The translations under genes and the position numbers were made by a program. Below are positions 1 through 7,062 of a DNA stretch of 7,062 bases, piece after piece. The stretch's first letter is position 1. Each line of letters begins with the position of its first letter. Source of the stretch: Candidatus Omnitrophota bacterium (GTDB lineage Bacteria > Omnitrophota > JACPQZ01); contig JACPQZ010000059.1 of the NCBI GenBank assembly GCA_016190205.1, forward strand, positions 1 to 7,062. Reading direction: 5' to 3'. The notes under the pieces were generated by a model. It saw only the letters and a program-made list of their open reading frames with translations. It was not told where the DNA came from and ran no database searches.

Positions 1-251
1 GCGACGGCGCCCGAAGAGATGAAGTCCGTCCCGCCCACGTCGGCCAGGATGGGCCAGGGGAAACTTCCCGCTTGTCCTGCGGTCTCATTGTCGGCATCGG
101 TTGTGGAGCTGATTGCAAAATTGTAGGTTGCTCCGTCTACCGCATAGAGCACCTTGACCGTGGAGACTTGACCTGCGATGGTCCATTGCACGGTTGAGGT
201 ATTACCTGCAATCCATTGTGTGCCCGTTGTAGGCGGATTGACGCCGGTCAC
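1..251 (-). repeat. domain 22 (partial), type C
   Basis: 83 residues before the window edge, the close partner of domain 8: T-T-G-T-Q-W-I-A-G-N-T, V-Q-W-T, V-K-V-L-Y, T-T-D-A-D-N-E and S-S-G-A-V. The remaining strands lie outside the window. Confidence 0.8.
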
Positions 252-3200
252 GTCTCCGACTACCACAAACTGACCTGATATATCCTCGGCGTCGGTCGAG
301 GTGGTGGCAGGGGTCGCCTGGCGGACCCTTAACTTTACGTTGTTCGAGGAGACCGTTTTGGGGAGATCCCAGACGAAGTCGATGTCGGCGCCGCTTGTAC
401 CCGTGTTGTCGTAAGTTGCGTCAATCACGGGCCAGGTGCCGGCATTGTTGACGTCGTAGGCCACTTCTACCGCCGTGACCCCTGTTCCCAGCTTCTGCCA
501 GCCGACGGTGACGTTATTCGTCCCCGTGGGATCGGTGAGCTGGAAGACCTGGCCGTCGGGGTCATTCACGTTTTGCGTCCAGTCGAATCCGCCCACGATC
601 GCGAAGGTGCCTGACTCGTAACTATTCAAGGCCTCATTGGCTGTACCTTCATATGTGACGTCCACGAGCTTGACGTGAATGCTGTTTCCGACCTTGTCCG
701 GAATATTCCAGGCATAGCTTGAGACGGTGTCCACATCCACCGTAGTGAGTTCCGTGACCTCATAACCAGAGCCATAATTGGGGAATAACTTGGCCTGTCC
801 GATCGCGCCGAAGGTGTTCCAGCTCACGGTCTGCGTCGTCCCCACCTGCCATTTGCTCGCGGTGGTGGGGGCATTGTAGGTAATATTGCCGAAGATCTTG
901 AAAGTACCCGAAGTAGCCAGCACGTAGCCGGAATAATCGGGAGTTGTCTGGTCATCCTGCACGCGGACCATGGCGTTCGTGGTCAACGTAGCCGGTACGG
1001 TGATGGCGGTGGACTGGCTATTGGTGGTTTCTCCGTCTACGAGTAAGGTGCCCGGGAAACCGCCGGCTCCGGCTGTGGAAAGACGGATGTCTACGGCTCC
1101 GATGGTGCCCTTTTCCGTCCAGGTCACCTCCTGGCTTTCGCTTAAGGCCCTCCAGACCCCCGTCTCGCCTCCCACGGTGGGAGTGATTTGGACGTTGGAG
1201 ATGATAGGATAGACCTTAAAGGAACCCGTCACGTCCTGAACCGCAGAGCCCCCGATCTGGGTAATCCGGACCTGGGCGGCGTAGGTCTTGACATCAGGCA
1301 CAGACCCCCCGCCATCCCAGTTGGACACGACATAGGTGTTGGCCCCCTCGACACTTGCGGTTGAGGCCTCCACGGTGCTCCAGCTCGAGCCATTATAAAA
1401 CTCGACCTTCACGTTGCCGAGCTTGCCAAGGGCGTTCCAGGTAATCTGCCGGTTCGTCTCGCCTATTTTCCACTCGGTGGAAGTGGTGGGCTCTGTTATC
1501 GCGAGATCACCGGTTACGAGGAAGGCATCCGAAGTGGTCTCGACGCTATAGTTAGGATCATAAATGCGCACCTTAAAGCTCGTGGCGATATCAATGATGG
1601 AAGTGGCCTGCTCTTGCACGTTCCACTCAAAATAGCCCTTGCCGCGCGGGGTGGTGGTGGCGCTGAAGGCCACGTCGTTATCGGCCGTCTGCGGAATGGC
1701 GGCGATGTCAAACGTTTGACCTGGGAAGAGCCCGTTGCTCGTTCCCTGAATCTTGACGGTGGCAATATTGCCCTGGGTCACGTTCCATTTGATCGTCACG
1801 GTCTGGCCGACCACCCAGGTCGAGGCCGCGGTGGGGGAAGTCACGCTCAAGCGGCCCTTGACCACAAAGCCGGGATCAGGGGGCGTGGGGGTAGACGGAG
1901 AAACATCAAAGATGTTGTCATTCAGCATGTCCGCCACCATGATATGATAATCGCTGTTAATCGGCGTCTGCGGAGGTGTCCAGTTAAACGTCCCCACATC
2001 TCCGGTCCAGGTTTCGTAATCGTCAAGAATCTGGTTTGCAGGCGGGTAGCTTAAGCCCCCGTCATCTGAATAGAAAACGTCAACGCCTTGGATATTCCCA
2101 AATCGAGTCCACTGGATCGCCTTGGCAATGCCCGCTTCATAATTATCAGGGTTCACCTGCGCGGGCAGGTTCACCTGCAGGGCGCCCTTTGTGGTAAAGG
2201 CCGCGCTTGGGACGCTAACCCCAAACGTATTATTGGCATCTATGACTTTGATCTTGGCCGTCGGGGAAAGAGTAATTCCCGTAACAAACCAGTCGTAATA
2301 CCCGTGATTGGCGTCGATGTTATTGGAGGGGGCGTCTCCGGTCACGTCGACATCCTGGGTATCATTAAAGTTTCCGGACGCAGAATAATAGATTTTTACG
2401 TTGGCAAAAGTTCCGTACTTGGTCCATTTGATGCTGTAGGTGTCGTTCGCGTCCCAGGAGTCCGTTACATTCGGCCGGTCGTTCCCCGACGGGTTATACA
2501 GGAAAACGATCTTGGACGCGACCGTGAAGTTGGGCGCTGACGTATCCTCCGCCGCCGAGTTATCGGGATCGGTGATGCGCAGTTTCACGGCATTCGAGAG
2601 GTCAGTAACCTTAGGCGTCCAGGTAAAGGACTCGCTGTTCGGCATCGTGGAGCCGACGACATCCAGGATATTGGTCCAAGGCGCTCCGCCGGTCAGGGAA
2701 TATTGCAGGATGATATCGGTAATGGCCGAGCCCACCTTATTCCACGTCACCGTCACCGGCTGTTCCGAGATGACGGGCGTGAAAGCCACATCCAGATTGG
2801 AGAATGAGCCGGTGATTTGGAAGGAGGGGCTCACGTCCAAAGTGTTGCTCTTGCGGTCCGCATCGGCGTTGGCATCCCGCACACGCACGGTTACGGTCTC
2901 GCTCACGGTGTCGTTGACACCCACCCCGGCGCCCGGATCCTCCCACGTCCACGTCCCCGCGCTCGCGCCTACGGTCGCGAGGAGGGTATACCCCGTGCCA
3001 TAGTTATAATGTATCTCGACGTTCGTAAGATTCCCGTAGCCGGTCCAGGTCACCGTGCGGTCGGTCGTGCCTACGAAATAGTCATCGTTGGCCCCCGGAG
3101 AAGCGCCGATCACAATCTTGCCAAAATTCCAGAAGTAGTCCGTGCCGCTCATGTTCAGCACACCAAACACGTAATCATCATAAGTCGTGTTACTGTCCTG

Positions 3201-6200
3201 GACCCGGACACTCAAGTTTTTGGAGACCGTGATGGGCGCGGTGACGTTGGTGGCGCTGTTGGCGCCGTTCGTGGTGGAAGCCACGTCGTTTCCGCCCACG
3301 AGGACGGAGCTTGATACATCCAGGCTGCCGGCGCCTGCGAGACTGTAGACGATGTCTACAGCGGTGATCTTGGCGCTCACATCATTCCAGCGTACGATGT
3401 GACCACCCTGCTCCGCCCGCCAGATCTTAGGCTCCGAGCCGGGGCTGTCTGTAAAGGGATCCACGGTGACATTGGTGATCTTAGGGTACACATAAAATGT
3501 GCCCGATTCATCGCTCACCCCGGCCCCGGTAAGCTGGGTGACCTTTAGTTTGGCGGCCAAGGTCCTTTCATCTGGGACTGACCCTCCTAAATCCCAGTTG
3601 GTGATGCTGTAACTATTGGCCCCCTGGACACTCGCCGTAGTGGCCTCGACCGTGCTCCAGGAAGCGCCGTTATAGAACTCGATCTTGACGTTTCCAATCA
3701 CGCCATACGTCGTCCAGGTGATGTTGTGGTTAGTCTCCCCAGACTGCCAGTCTACCGCCGGCGTGTCAACGTCTACGCGGCCCTGTATTTCAAAGTAGTC
3801 GCCGGAGACGTTACTCACGTCAAATCCAGTGGCTGCGTCATAGACCTTGACCTTGAGGCTTGTCCCGATGATGGAAGGCGAGAGCTCCTGGATGTTCCAG
3901 CCGTAGGATCCCTGGCCCCTGGGCGTTGCGGTGGAGACAAAGGTGGTTACGTTATCAGCGTCCTGGGGTGTGCCGGCGATCGTAAACGTTGTTCCTGGGT
4001 CAAAAGTGCCGTCAAGGCTTCCCAAAATCTTGACGTTCTGGATATTTCCCTGATCGATGTTCCAGGTGATGGTGCCCGTGGTACCAATATTCCAGGTGAG
4101 CGCCGTATCCGGCTGGGTGACATCAAGCTTACCCTGCACTCTAAAGGTGGGGCTCACGGCTAAAGTTGCGCTGTTTAATGCGTCGACTACCTTGATGGCA
4201 TAGGCCGTGCCGGCGGACCCGGTCCCTACAGTCTGGGGCACCGTCCACGGGATAGTGTCCACGGCTACGCCAAAGTCAAAGGAGACACCGGTATCAATGG
4301 TGGTGGGCGATCCGAATGCCGCGTTATCACTCGAATAATAGATATTTACCGCTTCAAACCGCCCGGTGCGGGTCCACTGGAGCGTCTTGGACTGCCCGGC
4401 TTGTAAATCTGTTCCATCCGGCTGGTCAACGACAAGCACACCCTTGACCATGAAGGCCAGAGAGTCATCTGTGATGTAGGTAGCCAGCGAAGATCTTGTA
4501 TCCTCAACCCGTACTTTGGCTACGGCGCCCGAGGAGGTGACCTGCGAACCGCCGAGATCCGTGGGGATGTTCCAGGCCAAACTGCCCGCCGCGCCGGGGG
4601 TGACATTGTCCGCATCCGTCGAAGGCGACACGATGAAGCTCGAAAACGATGAGCCGTCCCGCGCGTAATAGACCTTAACCGTTGGGAGCTCACCTGCCAT
4701 ATCCCAGGTAATAGTGCTCGTCGCGCCCGCGATCCACTGATTGCCCGTCGTGGGAGCTGTGACGTTCAAATATCCGACCACCACAAACTGCCCCGACGTG
4801 CGCGAGGAATCCGGCTGGGCGGGGGTGGAAGACGCGATCAAAAGTTTCACATTGTCCGACGAGAAGGTCTCGGGCAAATCCCAGACGTAATTGATGTTCG
4901 CCCCGCTCGAACCTGTGTTGGAAATATTCGAGTTGATGACGGTCGTCGCGCCGTCGTCAATGGTATAGGCGAGTTCCACAGCCGTAGCGGCTGTCCCTAA
5001 CTTCTGCCAACCCACCGTGAAGTTGTTGGTCCCGTTTACGTTTATAACCTGGGCCACCTGACCTTCCGGATCATTGGGGCTTGCGGCCCAGTTGAAATCG
5101 GCCAGTATCACGAACGGTGAGGATTCCCAGGTATTGTTCGCCTCATCTCCCGTCCCCTCATAAGTCACGTCCACGATCTTGACCTTGATGCTGTTACCGA
5201 CCTTATCCGGAATGGGGTTCCAGGGCCAGGCATTGGAACCGTTAACATCCACGGTAGCGAGCGGATCGGTCTCATAGCCCGTACCGTAATCCACGTAAAT
5301 CTTGGCAACTCCCACGGAGCCGTCCACCTTGCCGTTCCAGTCGATTGCCTTATCGGTAGCGTTTACGCGCCATTTGCTTGAGGCGACCGGATAGTTGTAG
5401 GACACGTTTCCGAAAATATTAAAGGACTGCGAGTAGCCCGCCACCTCCGTGCTCAAAGTGCCGGCCACATCCAATACTTGAACGACGACGTTGCTCGAAA
5501 TGGTATTGGCGACGTTGTTCCAGTTCACCTGCCCGAGGCTCGCGTCCACCTCGGTTTGAATGACATTGCTGTAAGGCGCACTACCCGTGGTCGAGTACTT
5601 GACGTCTACCGTCGTCACGTTCGTGGAGCCGTTCAAGCTCCACACGACGCCGGGGGTATAGTTTGCGGCAACCCGTCTGACCACCTCGGACCCCGGAGAG
5701 CTAACCGAGATAAGCGGCTTTATCGAAATCGCGCTGTCCGAATCATCGTAAACGTTTATATTGCCGTTATCCCTGACACGGAACCAGACCTGCTCGCTCT
5801 TCTCATCCGCCACCGAGGGCCAGGTGTAAGTTTGGCCCGCGCCGTCGCCGTGACCACCGCTCCCGCTCACCACCGTCTTGGTGAATGAGCCGGCCGTCGT
5901 GGTCTTATAAAGGATGTCGACAGTAGTAATGTCCCCGTCCGCCTCCCAGTTAATCGCCCGCGTCGTGTCTCCCTTGTACCAGGTCGTCCCCACGGGGGCC
6001 ACGTTCTTAATCACACCCCGGATAATGACGGTGTTCGTCGTGGGATTTTTGTCTGTCACGGGAATGCCGCCGATGCTCGTGACCCGCAGTTGGATTTTAT
6101 CCGTATTCATATCGGCGTAGCTCACGTCGCCCGCCGCGGGAGCCAGGGGCGTCCAGATATAAGACCCTGCGACATCTCCCCCCGCCGCCCCTGCGGGAAT

Positions 6201-6890
6201 ATTGGTATCGATTTCATGCACGCTCGAGCCAAAATCGTCCTTGGACCACTCGATCTTGACGTTGCCTATCGAGCCCCACTTGGTCCACTGCACCTTGAAG
6301 GTCTTTCCGATATCCAGGGTTTCCGAGCCGTTCGGGTAGTCCAGCCGGATATCTCCTATAATCCGGTTATTAGCGGCGCTCGACGTGCCCCACACATCCG
6401 GATTGCCGGCGTCCGTCACCTTGACACGAACGGTGGCAGAGATGTTGTCGTCCACCGAAGGCCACTGGTACGGTATGTCCGTCGTATTGGCTACAATCGG
6501 CAACCACTGCGTGCCGTCGTGGTAGTCAATCTTAAAGTTCGTAATGCCGCCATACTGCGTGTAATCAATCGTGTACGGCTTGTCGGCAACCATATCGTCG
6601 GCTGAATCGGGGTCGTTCACGAACAGACTTCCGATGATGGCATTCGCGACGAGGCTCGAGGAATTGACGTCGGCCTCTTTACCCGTTTCCGAGATCTTGA
6701 CCGTCACGGTCGTGGAGAGTTCTCCCGACGGAATGCGCCACGGGAAGCTTGTGGTAGTTGTGGGGTCGGCGATGATGGAGGAATTACTGCCGTTCACGTC
6801 CAAAATGGTTTTCCACTGGGCATCGCCCGTTTCGTATTCAAGCGTGATGCCGTTCGGCATGGGCGAGGGGGGACTGCCCAGCGGCGTCCA
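1..6890 (-). CDS. giant repetitive surface protein of Kre9/KNH-like Ig-fold domains, internal part downstream of an in-frame TAG
   Basis: This frame is open for 2,296 codons, from just after the TAG down to the window edge, where it runs off. It encodes domains 1 (most of it) to 22, each 92-121 residues, with the recurring marks W-x-x-G-x-T, [VI]-x-W, G-x-x-x-x-V-[KD]-[IV], W-x-[IV]-P, [VI]-[KR]-[VI]-x-D and S-x-x-F-x-[IV]-x-G. That pattern is typical of bacterial Ig-like repeats assigned to Kre9/KNH-like domains; no catalytic motif, signal peptide or membrane segment is present. No cysteine was found. The likely role, inferred from architecture, is an extracellular stalk, adhesin or cell-surface scaffold. 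The first ATG after the TAG is at 6860-6858, but it sits in mid-domain with no Shine-Dalgarno-like sequence before it, so this is probably not a true start. The frame most likely continues the same gene as the piece above 6890. Fibronectin type III or PKD domains are possible alternatives, but the motif spacing fits them less well. Confidence 0.9.
252..587 (-). repeat. domain 21, type B
   Basis: 112 residues, the close partner of domain 7: N-D-P-D-G-Q-V, G-T-N-N-V-T-V-G-W-Q-K-L-G-T, V-W-D-L-P, N-V-K-L-R-V and S-G-Q-F-V-V-V-G. Confidence 0.85.
588..884 (-). repeat. domain 20, type A
   Basis: 99 residues, the close partner of domain 6: A-S-K-W-Q-V-G-T-T, V-S-W-N, N-Y-G-S-G-Y-E, A-W-N-I-P-D-K-V-G-N-S-I and V-D-V-T-Y-E-G-T. 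Confidence 0.85.
885..1202 (-). repeat. domain 19, type G
   Basis: 106 residues: V-W-R-A, V-T-W-T-E-K-G-T-I-G, S-T-A-G-A-G, V-R-V-Q-D and F-K-I-F-G-N. It matches domain 12 in the middle and domain 5 at the end. Confidence 0.8.
1203..1505 (-). repeat. domain 18, type F
   Basis: 101 residues, the partner of domain 11: W-K-I-G-E-T-N, I-T-W-N, G-N-V-K-V-E-F-Y-N-G, W-S-T-V-E-A, N-W-D-G-G-G-S-V-P-D and F-K-V-Y-P. Similarity to domain 11 is obvious at DNA level too. Confidence 0.85.
1506..1850 (-). repeat. domain 17, type E
   Basis: 115 residues, the partner of domain 10: W-V-V-G-Q-T, I-K-W-N-V-T-Q-G-N-I, A-D-N-D, T-P-R-G-K-G, W-N-V-Q-E and F-K-V-R-I-Y-D. Confidence 0.85.
1851..2180 (-). repeat. 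domain 16, type D, with a proline-rich end
   Basis: 110 residues: I-Q-W-T-R-F-G-N-I, Y-S-D-D-G-G-L-S-Y and F-N-W-T-P. Before the closing F-V-V-K-G-R there is a Pro/Thr/Ser stretch, S-P-S-T-P-T-P-P-D-P, not seen elsewhere in the window; it may be a stiff hinge. It resembles domain 9. Confidence 0.8.
2181..2510 (-). repeat. domain 15, divergent type C
   Basis: 110 residues: Y-S-I-K-W-T-K-Y-G, N-V-K-I-Y-Y-S, Y-Y-D-W-F-V and A-K-I-K-V-I-D. It sits in the C position, and its start lies 2,259 bases from the starts of both domain 8 and domain 22. Sequence similarity to them is only at general family level. Confidence 0.7.
2511..2804 (-). repeat. domain 14, divergent type B
   Basis: 98 residues. 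V-T-V-T-W-N-K-V-G-S and A-V-K-L-R-I-T-D correspond to V-T-V-G-W-Q-K-L-G-T and N-V-K-L-R-V of domain 21. Like the other B domains it lacks W-x-x-G-x-T. It has a D-P-D-N loop. Confidence 0.75.
2805..3116 (-). repeat. domain 13, divergent type A
   Basis: 104 residues: V-G-T-T-D-R-T-V-T-W, N-V-E-I-H-Y, N-Y-G-T-G-Y, W-T-W-E and V-T-V-R-V-R-D-A. The N-Y-G-T-G-Y motif links it to domains 6 and 20, but they resemble each other much more than they resemble it. It contains an Asp/Ala-rich stretch, D-A-N-A-D-A-D. Confidence 0.75.
3117..3479 (-). repeat. domain 12, type G, longest of the array
   Basis: 121 residues. W-R-A replaces the usual W-x-x-G, as in domain 19; both share A-V-D-I, [TL]-A-G-A-G, L-V-x-G and V-R-V-Q-D. 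It is longer than domain 19 by about 15 residues, mostly in an Asn/Ser/Thr-rich loop and in the segment after V-R-V-Q-D. Confidence 0.8.
3480..3776 (-). repeat. domain 11, type F
   Basis: 99 residues, strongly similar to domain 18. Shared marks are G-E-T-N, I-T-W, G-N-V-K-[IV]-E-F-Y-N-G, W-S-T-V-E-A, T-A-S-V, G-A-N, N-W-D, G-G-S-V-P-D and V-Y-P. Type F uses N-W-D instead of W-x-[IV]-P. Confidence 0.85.
3777..4127 (-). repeat. domain 10, type E
   Basis: 117 residues, about half identical by eye to domain 17. Shared marks are Q-G-N-I before V-K-I, an A-D-N loop, T-P-R-G-[QK]-G, W-N-[IV]-Q-E and S-I-I. The extra loop between the A-D-N and T-P-R-G motifs makes this type longer than average. Confidence 0.85.
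4128..4436 (-). repeat. domain 9, type D
   Basis: 103 residues. It resembles domain 16: L-Q-W-T-R-T-G against I-Q-W-T-R-F-G, N-I-Y-Y-S-S-D against D-V-F-Y-S-D-D, W-T-V-P-Q-T against W-T-P-P-Q-T, and the V-S-P ... V-x-G-[KR] ending. Confidence 0.8.
4437..4769 (-). repeat. domain 8, type C
   Basis: 111 residues. It matches domain 22: T-T-G-N-Q-W-I-A-G against T-T-G-T-Q-W-I-A-G, V-K-V-Y-Y against V-K-V-L-Y, S-T-D-A-D-N against T-T-D-A-D-N, and a shared S-S-G-A-V. The D-A-D-N loop is one of several Asp-rich loops in the array. Confidence 0.85.
4770..5096 (-). repeat. domain 7, type B
   Basis: 109 residues. It lacks W-x-x-G-x-T and instead has N-D-P-E-G-Q-V and G-T-N-N before V-G-W-Q-K-L-G-T. 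It shares V-G-W-Q-K-L-G-T, V-W-D-L-P, D-N-V-K-L and the end S-G-Q-F-V-V-V-G with domain 21, 14 domains further on. Confidence 0.85.
5097..5405 (-). repeat. domain 6, type A
   Basis: 103 residues. It is closely similar to domain 20 over most of its length: S-S-K-W-R-V against A-S-K-W-Q-V, D-Y-G-T-G-Y-E against N-Y-G-S-G-Y-E, then the shared I-P-D-K-V-G-N-S-I and V-D-V-T-Y-E-G-T. At DNA level 5161-5213 and 652-704 differ at 8 of 53 bases by hand count, 5 of them synonymous. Confidence 0.85.
5406..5711 (-). repeat. domain 5, type G
   Basis: 102 residues. Its end and the following link, F-N-I-F-G-N then V-S-Y-N-Y-P, correspond to F-K-I-F-G-N then I-T-Y-N-A-P at the end of domain 19. The usual W-x-x-G is replaced by V-V-R-R-V, as in the other G domains, where W-R-A stands at this place. 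Q-V-N-W is the W-strand. Confidence 0.75.
5712..6011 (-). repeat. domain 4, with a Gly/His-rich loop
   Basis: 100 residues: W-Y-K-G-D-T-T, A-I-N-W, V-D-I-L-Y, T-Y-T-W-P and V-W-F-R-V-R-D. Between the two halves lies an unusual Gly-rich loop with one His (about 5832-5870). Type F by position; similarity to domains 11 and 18 is weak. Confidence 0.7.
6012..6350 (-). repeat. domain 3, close to the family consensus
   Basis: 113 residues. It shows the consensus opening P-N-G-S-E-T-L-D-I-G-K-T, then V-Q-W-T, then G-S-I-G-N-V-K-I-E-W, and S-Y-I-W-T-P. This is the clearest link in the window to bacterial Kre9/KNH-like repeats. An Ala/Gly-rich loop lies before the S-Y-I-W strand. Type E by position, with weak similarity to domains 10 and 17. 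Confidence 0.8.
6351..6626 (-). repeat. domain 2, shortest of the array
   Basis: 92 residues. The conserved strand Trp is replaced by Tyr (Y-T-I-D-Y-T). G-I-T-N-F-K-I-D-Y, Y-Q-W-P and V-R-V-K-V-T-D are clear. By position it would be type D; its opening L-F-V-N-D-P-D resembles L-V-V-D-Q-P-D of domain 9, but the match fades further on. Confidence 0.7.
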
Positions 6891-6950
6891 CTACACCGTA
6901 TGATTGGTCTGCACAGGAAGATCCAGCCCGCTCGGGGCGTCCAGACGTAT
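6627..6950 (-). repeat. domain 1, interrupted by TAG
   Basis: 108 codons. It starts I-R-L-D-A-P, like domain 3 (I-R-L-D-Y-P). The W-x-x-G motif is missing. The stop codon sits in the [VI]-x-W strand. After it follow G-I-T-L-E-Y, a W-K-T-I-L-D strand, F-P-W-R-I-P and V-T-V-K-I-S. Position in the series predicts type C, but similarity to the other C domains is weak. Confidence 0.7.
6891..6893 (-). other. in-frame amber stop (TAG) inside domain 1
   Basis: The minus-strand codons read GTG-TAG-TGG-ACG. In domain 3 the matching codons are GTG-CAG-TGG-ACC, so one C-to-T transition (G to A on the plus strand, position 6893) explains the stop. The matching residue in domains 3, 9, 16 and 22 is Gln, encoded CAG in 3, 9 and 16. 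Frame and domain pattern continue intact on both sides, so there is no frameshift. It is the only stop in about 2,353 codons of this frame. A base error, a real nonsense mutation or recoding cannot be told apart here. Confidence 0.9.
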
Positions 6951-7062
6951 GCCGGCGAAGAGGAAGAAGTTACCATCCGACACATCGGTCGCGACGGAAT
7001 CGCCTTCCTTGGTGATCCTTACGACCGTGTCGTCATTGGGGGTATTCGGAATAGTCCAGGAC
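6891..7062 (-). CDS. end of the upstream part of the same giant repeat protein, closed by an in-frame TAG
   Basis: The same frame enters from beyond the 7062 edge and reads 56 codons before the TAG at 6893-6891. It starts inside a domain (the W-T-I-P strand, then V-V-R-I-T, then D-V-S-D-G-N-F-F-L-F-A-G) and passes into the next one (I-R-L-D-A-P ... N-H-T-V-stop). The stop falls one residue before the conserved Trp of a beta strand, so a protein ending here would lose nearly all of its last domain. A natural C-terminus in mid-strand is unlikely. I read this as the N-terminal side of one gene with the 1-6890 frame, split by a nonsense change, a sequencing error or readthrough. An automatic gene caller would annotate it as a separate gene. 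Confidence 0.8.
   Translation of the reverse strand, partial: SWTIPNTPNDDTVVRITKEGDSVATDVSDGNFFLFAGIRLDAPSGLDLPVQTNHTV
6951..7062 (-). repeat. domain 0 (partial): C-terminal part of a Kre9/KNH-like domain
   Basis: Only the last 37 residues are in the window: the W-T-I-P strand, an N-D-D-T loop, V-V-R-I-T and the closing F-F-L-F-A-G. This is the standard second half of the domain, showing that the array continues upstream of the window. Confidence 0.75.

What the first reader, a model, noticed from the sequence alone, without database searches (positions are those of the whole stretch)
1..5711. Seven-domain super-repeat (types A to G) of about 2.2-2.3 kb
Domains seven apart share type-specific marks: 10 and 17 (Q-G-N-I, T-P-R-G), 11 and 18 (W-S-T-V-E-A, G-G-S-V-P-D), 12 and 19 (W-R-A, V-R-V-Q-D), 9 and 16, and 6, 13 and 20 ([ND]-Y-G-[TS]-G-Y). 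Start-to-start offsets for equal types seven apart in domains 5-22 are between 2,217 and 2,292 bases. The gene therefore grew by copying blocks of seven domains, not only single domains. A regular seven-domain unit may set a structural period along the fibre.
Basis: seen in the sequence. Interest (0 to 1): 0.7.

Follow-up and report, generated by a model that had tools for sequence, protein, structure and literature searches.

The report
Seven-domain repeat unit in giant proteins
A giant, probably cell-surface protein of the uncultured bacterial phylum Omnitrophota is built from an ordered set of seven slightly different immunoglobulin-like domains repeated over and over, and the same seven types recur in the same order in giant proteins of many other species of the phylum, a "repeat of repeats" comparable in layout to that of the muscle protein titin.

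Summary
The window is a whole contig from an Omnitrophota genome; its minus strand encodes part of a giant protein (2,353 codons, one in-frame TAG; 22 Ig-like domains plus a partial one). Domains 7 and 14 apart are far more alike than others (permutation p about 5e-4): types D-G pair at 7, types A-C best at 14. Synonymous sites are nearly saturated, so these copies are old. In 37 further arrays from the phylum, lag 7 is the best period in 18. Register shifts between proteins are mutually consistent (112 of 153 pairs; null at most 57), and modulus 7 beats moduli 3-11. Recent duplications elsewhere fall mostly on multiples of seven (171 of 217 domain pairs). The F-to-G joint usually carries proline. 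So a seven-type unit arose once in an ancestor, and arrays grew largely by whole units. A structural period along a fibre is plausible but not shown. No earlier report was found in the library searched.

The parts
3..7061 (-). Open stretch of a giant gene, 2,353 codons, open at both contig ends; one in-frame TAG at 6891-6893
   Evidence: window is the complete contig G000:C51
6954..7061 (-). domain 0, C-terminal part only, type B
6636..6953 (-). domain 1, type C (contains the in-frame TAG)
6360..6635 (-). domain 2, type D
6021..6359 (-). domain 3, type E
5721..6020 (-). domain 4, type F
5415..5720 (-). domain 5, type G (proline joint KPLISV)
5106..5414 (-). domain 6, type A (56% identical to domain 20)
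4779..5105 (-). domain 7, type B (55% identical to domain 21)
4446..4778 (-). domain 8, type C (56% identical to domain 22)
4137..4445 (-). domain 9, type D (34% identical to domain 16)
3786..4136 (-). domain 10, type E (52% identical to domain 17)
3489..3785 (-). domain 11, type F (55% identical to domain 18); modelled as a 7-strand beta sandwich, pLDDT 88
3129..3488 (-). domain 12, type G (45% identical to domain 19; proline joint YPKITN)
2814..3128 (-). domain 13, type A
2520..2813 (-). domain 14, type B
2190..2519 (-). domain 15, position of type C (own sequence not recognised as C; phase from neighbours)
1860..2189 (-). domain 16, type D
1515..1859 (-). domain 17, type E
1212..1514 (-). 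domain 18, type F
894..1211 (-). domain 19, type G (proline joint YPIISN)
597..893 (-). domain 20, type A
261..596 (-). domain 21, type B
3..260 (-). domain 22, type C, cut by the contig end

Best explanation
The window is an internal piece of a giant, probably exported protein of an Omnitrophota bacterium. SHOWN: the protein is an array of about 100-residue Ig-like beta-sandwich domains of seven types in fixed cyclic order (A-G in window naming), in one unbroken register through the window; the same types in the same order recur in giant proteins of other families of the phylum, in many of which the array ends at type D next to a conserved C-terminal tail, so the natural unit reads [E-F-G-A-B-C-D]n. 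SHOWN in relatives: recent copies mostly lie at multiples of seven domains. INFERRED: the seven-type unit formed once in a common ancestor and copy number then changed mainly in whole units, by recombination between in-phase copies and/or because out-of-phase changes were selected against. INFERRED: the array is a long extracellular fibre or stalk, each position in the unit keeping its own surface and joint (a proline joint before type G once per unit), so the fibre has a seven-domain period of roughly 28 nm (taking about 4 nm per Ig domain, general knowledge); the head and tail provide export, anchoring or binding. What it binds is unknown; cell-cell adhesion or a cell coat is the likeliest role, from what is published on giant Omnitrophota proteins (PMC10066038).
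For: Self-similarity at lags 7 and 14. Lag 7 best period in 18 of 38 arrays, 15 of them with z at least 4, up to z 17 in an 85-domain array and an almost perfect repeat in G029. Register shifts between 18 arrays mutually consistent: 112/153 pairs, null mean 49 and maximum 57; modulus 7 scores 43.9 against 3-27 for other moduli. Leave-one-protein-out type profiles recover the cyclic order in the window (18/23 domains, p about 7e-11) and in arrays never used for training (G039, L062, G121). Copies at multiples of 7: 171 of 217 close pairs, including an exact seven-domain run in G117 and a six-to-seven-domain run in G045:C4. Conserved tail and Omnitrophota records found by the tail alone, a search independent of the Ig domains. 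N-terminal head plus the first domains of an array on contig C66 of the same genome. Single-domain model, Ig-like sandwich, pLDDT 88. Proline F-to-G joint 65% versus 21% elsewhere, in all 13 proteins.
Against: Five of 23 window domains are not assigned to their expected type, and domains 13-15 resemble their in-phase partners only weakly. About half of the arrays do not have lag 7 as best period; G045:C27 has period 4, and a subgroup of very uniform arrays shows lags 1-4 as strongly as 7. Most relatives were found with window-derived queries, which favours in-register arrays. The tail was not found in the window's own assembly. Nothing measured shows that the unit is a structural rather than only an evolutionary period (pTM 0.40).
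Confidence: 0.78

Rival explanations
1. Pure duplication history: the unit of seven has no structural meaning; recombination between in-phase copies simply keeps reproducing whatever block length was first duplicated.
For: Types are homologous between proteins, so in-phase pairing would by itself favour steps of seven; long lag-7 runs sit in arrays with high in-phase similarity (G029, G182, G199).
Against: In the seven-domain duplication of G117 the rest of the array has mostly background lag-7 scores (16-167, mostly under 80, against median 54), so little in-phase similarity is left to guide recombination; synonymous sites of window copies are near saturation while type identity persists, which points to selection on position-specific residues; a marked joint recurs once per unit.
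Confidence: 0.4
2. Seven-fold similarity arose independently in different giant proteins because seven domains make one turn of a superhelix (convergence, not shared ancestry).
For: Lag 7 also appears in arrays whose domains do not map clearly onto types A-G (G045:C4, G268/G373).
Against: Most arrays share the same types in the same order with mutually consistent register shifts, which convergence would not give.
Confidence: 0.1
3. The signal is simple collinear orthology: relatives share one ordered array, and the seven-fold pattern between proteins is a by-product.
For: The last blocks before the tail look orthologous position by position (F domains beginning VGSLDV in L062, L064, L065, L066); all moduli score somewhat above their null.
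Against: Modulus 7 is far above all others; the periodicity is present inside single proteins; profiles pooled over blocks predict type order in held-out proteins.
Confidence: 0.08
4. Chance resemblance or assembly artefact.
For: The window is a fragment from a draft genome with one in-frame stop.
Against: Permutation p about 5e-4 in the window alone; in-phase copies differ at about half of residues and at most synonymous sites, so they are not assembly copies; independent genomes agree.
Confidence: 0.01

Closest known systems
Titin A-band super-repeats (D-zone: six copies of a seven-domain unit; C-zone: eleven copies of an 11-domain unit; PMC10665226)
   Same: Giant chain of beta-sandwich domains organised as repeats of repeats; a seven-domain unit; domains at equal positions resemble each other across units; joint sequences vary periodically.
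   Different: Bacterial, not muscle; no detectable sequence relation (no PDB sequence match to the domain profile); titin's unit mixes two fold classes (Ig and FnIII), here all seven types belong to one family; binding partner unknown.
Giant proteins of Omnitrophota (PMC10066038), e.g. the 39,678-aa protein of Velamenicoccus archaeovorus
   Same: Same phylum, giant size, probable extracellular role.
   Different: The published text describes few annotated domains (discoidin, laminin_G_3, dockerin, transmembrane helices); the passages read mention no ordered seven-type Ig-like array.
Giant bacterial Ig-like adhesins, e.g. Mobiluncus mulieris adhesin with 51 repeat Ig-like domains (PMC10619420)
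   Same: Long stalk of tandem Ig-like domains with a terminal functional domain.
   Different: Domains there are cross-linked ester and isopeptide types; no seven-domain ordered unit is described in the passages read.
Pfam PF10342 Kre9_KNH (Kre9/KNH-like N-terminal Ig-like domain)
   Same: The only Pfam family with repeated weak matches (3 of 28 domains at E below 0.01).
   Different: The window protein scores 19.9 bits, below the curated cut-off of 24.6.

Membership tests
Seven-type Omnitrophota array (group defined here) | Ig-like domains in cyclic order A-G | tested here: met
   18/23 window domains by profiles built without the window
Seven-type Omnitrophota array (group defined here) | Lag-7 (or multiple) self-similarity | tested here: met
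   z 4.9 at lag 7, 5.4 at lag 14
Seven-type Omnitrophota array (group defined here) | Conserved C-terminal tail after the array | tested here: inconclusive
   Not found in the fragmented own assembly, while found in three control genomes in the same search; the window ends inside the array
Seven-type Omnitrophota array (group defined here) | N-terminal head before the array | tested here: inconclusive
   Head and first Ig-like domains on contig C66 of the same genome, but the two contigs do not overlap
Titin-type super-repeat protein | Multi-domain unit repeated with position-specific types | tested here: met
   this is resemblance in layout only
Titin-type super-repeat protein | Sequence homology to titin domains | tested here: not met
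   Profile search of all PDB chains: no match at E up to 0.1; not filed as a titin homologue
Titin-type super-repeat protein | Unit period matches the period of a partner filament | not testable with these tools
   No partner known
Kre9_KNH (PF10342) | Score at or above the Pfam gathering cut-off | tested here: not met
   19.9 against 24.6 bits
Ig-like beta-sandwich fold | Seven-stranded sandwich with matches to Ig/FnIII-like structures | tested here: met
   AlphaFold model pLDDT 88, pTM 0.82; VIA-align best Z 10.2 and 9.3 to complement C5 entries and 9.2 to a carbohydrate-binding module; Foldseek alone gives only E 7e-3

The most novel reading that the evidence does not exclude
A phylum-wide bacterial molecular ruler: the seven-type unit is held in phase by selection because each unit docks to a repeating partner (a coat lattice, a neighbouring giant protein, or a polysaccharide), so fibre length is set in whole units as with titin on the thick filament.
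Probability: 0.25. Interest if true: 0.85.

Novelty: new variant of a known kind. Interest (0 to 1): 0.64.

Why it matters
Giant proteins are a hallmark of Omnitrophota and are described as poorly conserved with few annotated domains. A fixed seven-type unit, shared by many families and readable by profiles, gives them a grammar: arrays can be annotated, missing assembly pieces can be placed by phase, and a single seven-domain unit (about 730-760 aa) is small enough to express and solve. It also offers a bacterial system, unrelated by sequence, in which to ask why giant Ig-like chains settle on multi-domain super-repeats, a question so far studied mainly in titin.

Tried and rejected
Tandem Repeats Finder finds nothing: the period is longer than its 500-base limit and the copies too diverged. 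NCBIfam gives no family; Pfam only weak matches. A genome-contig search with the window protein itself found no relative; the conserved tail worked. Joining the window to contig C66 by overlap failed: no shared sequence beyond a chance 15-mer, and the phase of the C66 domains is unclear from their scores, so the gap was not bridged. Types A-G could not be assigned reliably in the uniform arrays (G208, G279, G144, G068, L053), in G045:C4 or in G045:C27. The nine-domain model was rejected as a source of superhelix geometry (pTM 0.40; coordinates not available); its matches to mastigonemes, complement and titin chains are read only as 'chain of Ig-like domains'. Literature searches for titin-like or other super-repeats in bacterial surface proteins and for Ig-like repeats in Omnitrophota gave no report of this unit; subscription papers and preprints are not held.
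Full report
WHAT THE WINDOW IS. The window is the complete contig C51 (7,062 bases) of a 1.65-Mb, 76-contig draft genome. A single minus-strand frame is open across it apart from one TAG at 6891-6893. Of 14 named records recovered through the conserved tail, 11 are titled 'Candidatus Omnitrophota', one 'Omnitrophica WOR_2', one 'Planctomycetales' and one 'uncultured bacterium'; several of them are the same contigs as genomes that the search tool lists as the window's own phylum (contig lengths). I read the organism as Omnitrophota on that basis.

CHECK OF THE OBSERVATION. I split the protein into a partial domain and 22 further domains of 86-120 aa; an HMM built from them finds the same boundaries. 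In the all-against-all matrix the mean score at lag 7 is 99 and at lag 14 it is 133, against about 40-60 at most other lags; permuting domain order reaches these values in 0.06% and 0.04% of trials. The pattern is uneven: 10/17, 11/18 and 12/19 are 45-55% identical, 9/16 and 6/13 about 34%, and the closest copies of types A-C are 14 apart (6/20, 7/21, 8/22 at 55-56%). At four-fold sites of identical residues the third base agrees in 79 of 183 cases over the six closest pairs, against 35% in out-of-phase pairs: the copies are old, and type identity has outlived synonymous near-saturation.

THE SAME PERIOD ELSEWHERE. The window protein matches ORFs in 10 of 57 other relatives and, at E up to 1e-20, its central part matches in 33 of 383 other genomes drawn from the phylum. 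I segmented long ORFs from these and from the tail-derived loci with a profile. Among 38 arrays of at least 12 domains (the window included, duplicates removed), lag 7 is the best of all lags in 18, in 15 of these with z at least 4; for the window the best lag is 14, followed by 7. The clearest are G199 (85 domains, z about 17), G182 (74 domains, z 16), G029 (35 domains; means 305, 270 and 230 at lags 7, 14 and 21 against about 90) and G109. Exceptions are G045:C27 (period 4) and a subgroup of very uniform arrays. Selection by window-derived queries could favour in-register arrays; the tail-derived set is free of that bias and includes the arrays of G182, G199, G109, G327, G271, G208 and G039, all with lag 7 first.

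THE SAME TYPES IN THE SAME ORDER. For 18 arrays I asked which register shift modulo 7 best matches each pair. One offset per protein explains the best shift in 112 of 153 pairs; randomised shifts explain 49 on average and at most 57. With other moduli the gain over null is much smaller. Profiles for seven types, rebuilt each time without the tested protein, recover the cyclic order: in the window 59% of neighbouring domains step to the next type (shuffled mean 14%, maximum 45%), and 18 of 23 domains get the expected type (p about 7e-11 after correction for the choice of register). Domains 0 to 5, which show little in-window similarity, are all correct. Arrays never used in training (G039, L062, G121) show it too. 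The last domain before the tail is type D in 10 of 14 type-resolved arrays (read; p 2e-6), so the unit is best written E-F-G-A-B-C-D. Hence the order is inherited from a common ancestor and not reinvented.

HOW IT GREW. Close copies inside arrays lie at multiples of seven in 171 of 217 domain pairs; most of the rest are in the single period-4 array. G117 has exactly seven consecutive domains duplicated almost unchanged (normalised score 0.99), and G045:C4 has seven consecutive high values. This supports growth in whole units. Whether that reflects recombination between in-phase copies or selection against out-of-phase ones is open; G117 argues for some selection, since the rest of its array has little in-phase similarity left.

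STRUCTURE AND ARCHITECTURE. A type-F domain (domain 11) is predicted as a seven-stranded sandwich (pLDDT 88, pTM 0.82) with best structural matches to a complement C5 domain (Z 10.2) and a carbohydrate-binding module (Z 9.2); Foldseek alone is weak (best E 7e-3) and no PDB sequence matches. The nine-domain model (pLDDT 75, pTM 0.40) is consistent with a chain of such domains but does not give their geometry. The joint before type G carries proline in 65% of cases, in all 13 proteins, against 21% at other joints (Fisher p 6e-13, cells not independent); the window has it at domains 5, 12 and 19. The array sits between a head and a conserved tail that begins DYYxITWxIRDLLTN and includes a coiled-coil-like stretch. 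In the window's genome a head with the first Ig-like domains is on contig C66, not joined to the window, and the tail is absent from the assembly although the same search finds it in three controls.

FUNCTION. Inferred: a long extracellular fibre. Published work proposes adhesion, coat or predation roles for giant Omnitrophota proteins and notes few recognised domains (PMC10066038; also PMC12057145). The closest analogue in layout is titin, whose D-zone is six copies of a seven-domain unit (PMC10665226); there is no detected sequence relation. With about 4 nm per Ig domain (general knowledge) the unit would be near 28 nm. No partner or ligand is known.

VERDICT. Real, inherited, widespread in the phylum and, in the literature I could search, undescribed; a new variant of a known kind (giant Ig-like surface proteins with titin-style super-repeats). 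The evolutionary unit is well supported; the structural period is a good hypothesis that one expressed unit could test.

Noticed in passing
window 6891-6893 (minus strand): One in-frame TAG interrupts an otherwise open 2,353-codon frame, inside domain 1; sequencing error, nonsense mutation or pseudogene cannot be told apart here.
   Followed up: partly
G045:C27 (loci L119, L120): A 65-domain array from the same phylum with a clear four-domain super-repeat (lags 4, 8, 12) and lag-9/10 copies instead of seven.
   Followed up: partly
G117:C6 (L115), first 14 domains at the contig edge: Seven consecutive domains duplicated almost identically, a very recent whole-unit tandem copy (or an assembly copy; DNA identity not checked).
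   Followed up: partly
L034, L035, L036, L037 and others, C-terminal about 500-800 aa: Conserved tail (DYYxITWxIRDLLTN, VHIWES, coiled coil, SPxLKEIR) without a Pfam family at cut-off; a good marker for finding giant proteins of this group.
   Followed up: partly
L032 (contig C66) 3-2423 minus: 807-aa 5' end of a giant gene in the same genome: hydrophobic N-terminal segment, about 400-aa head without Pfam match, then Ig-like domains running off the contig; a TPR-like protein gene lies just upstream.
   Followed up: partly
G208:C106, G279:C13, G144:C9, G068:C1, L053: A subgroup of arrays with very uniform domains, all mutually similar, in which lags 1-4 are as strong as 7; looks like a separately homogenised branch.
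   Followed up: no
model of window 1212-4136: Best multi-domain structural matches include the Chlamydomonas mastigoneme filament, S-layer proteins and the human cardiac myosin filament entry; only a general resemblance of Ig-like chains.
   Followed up: no
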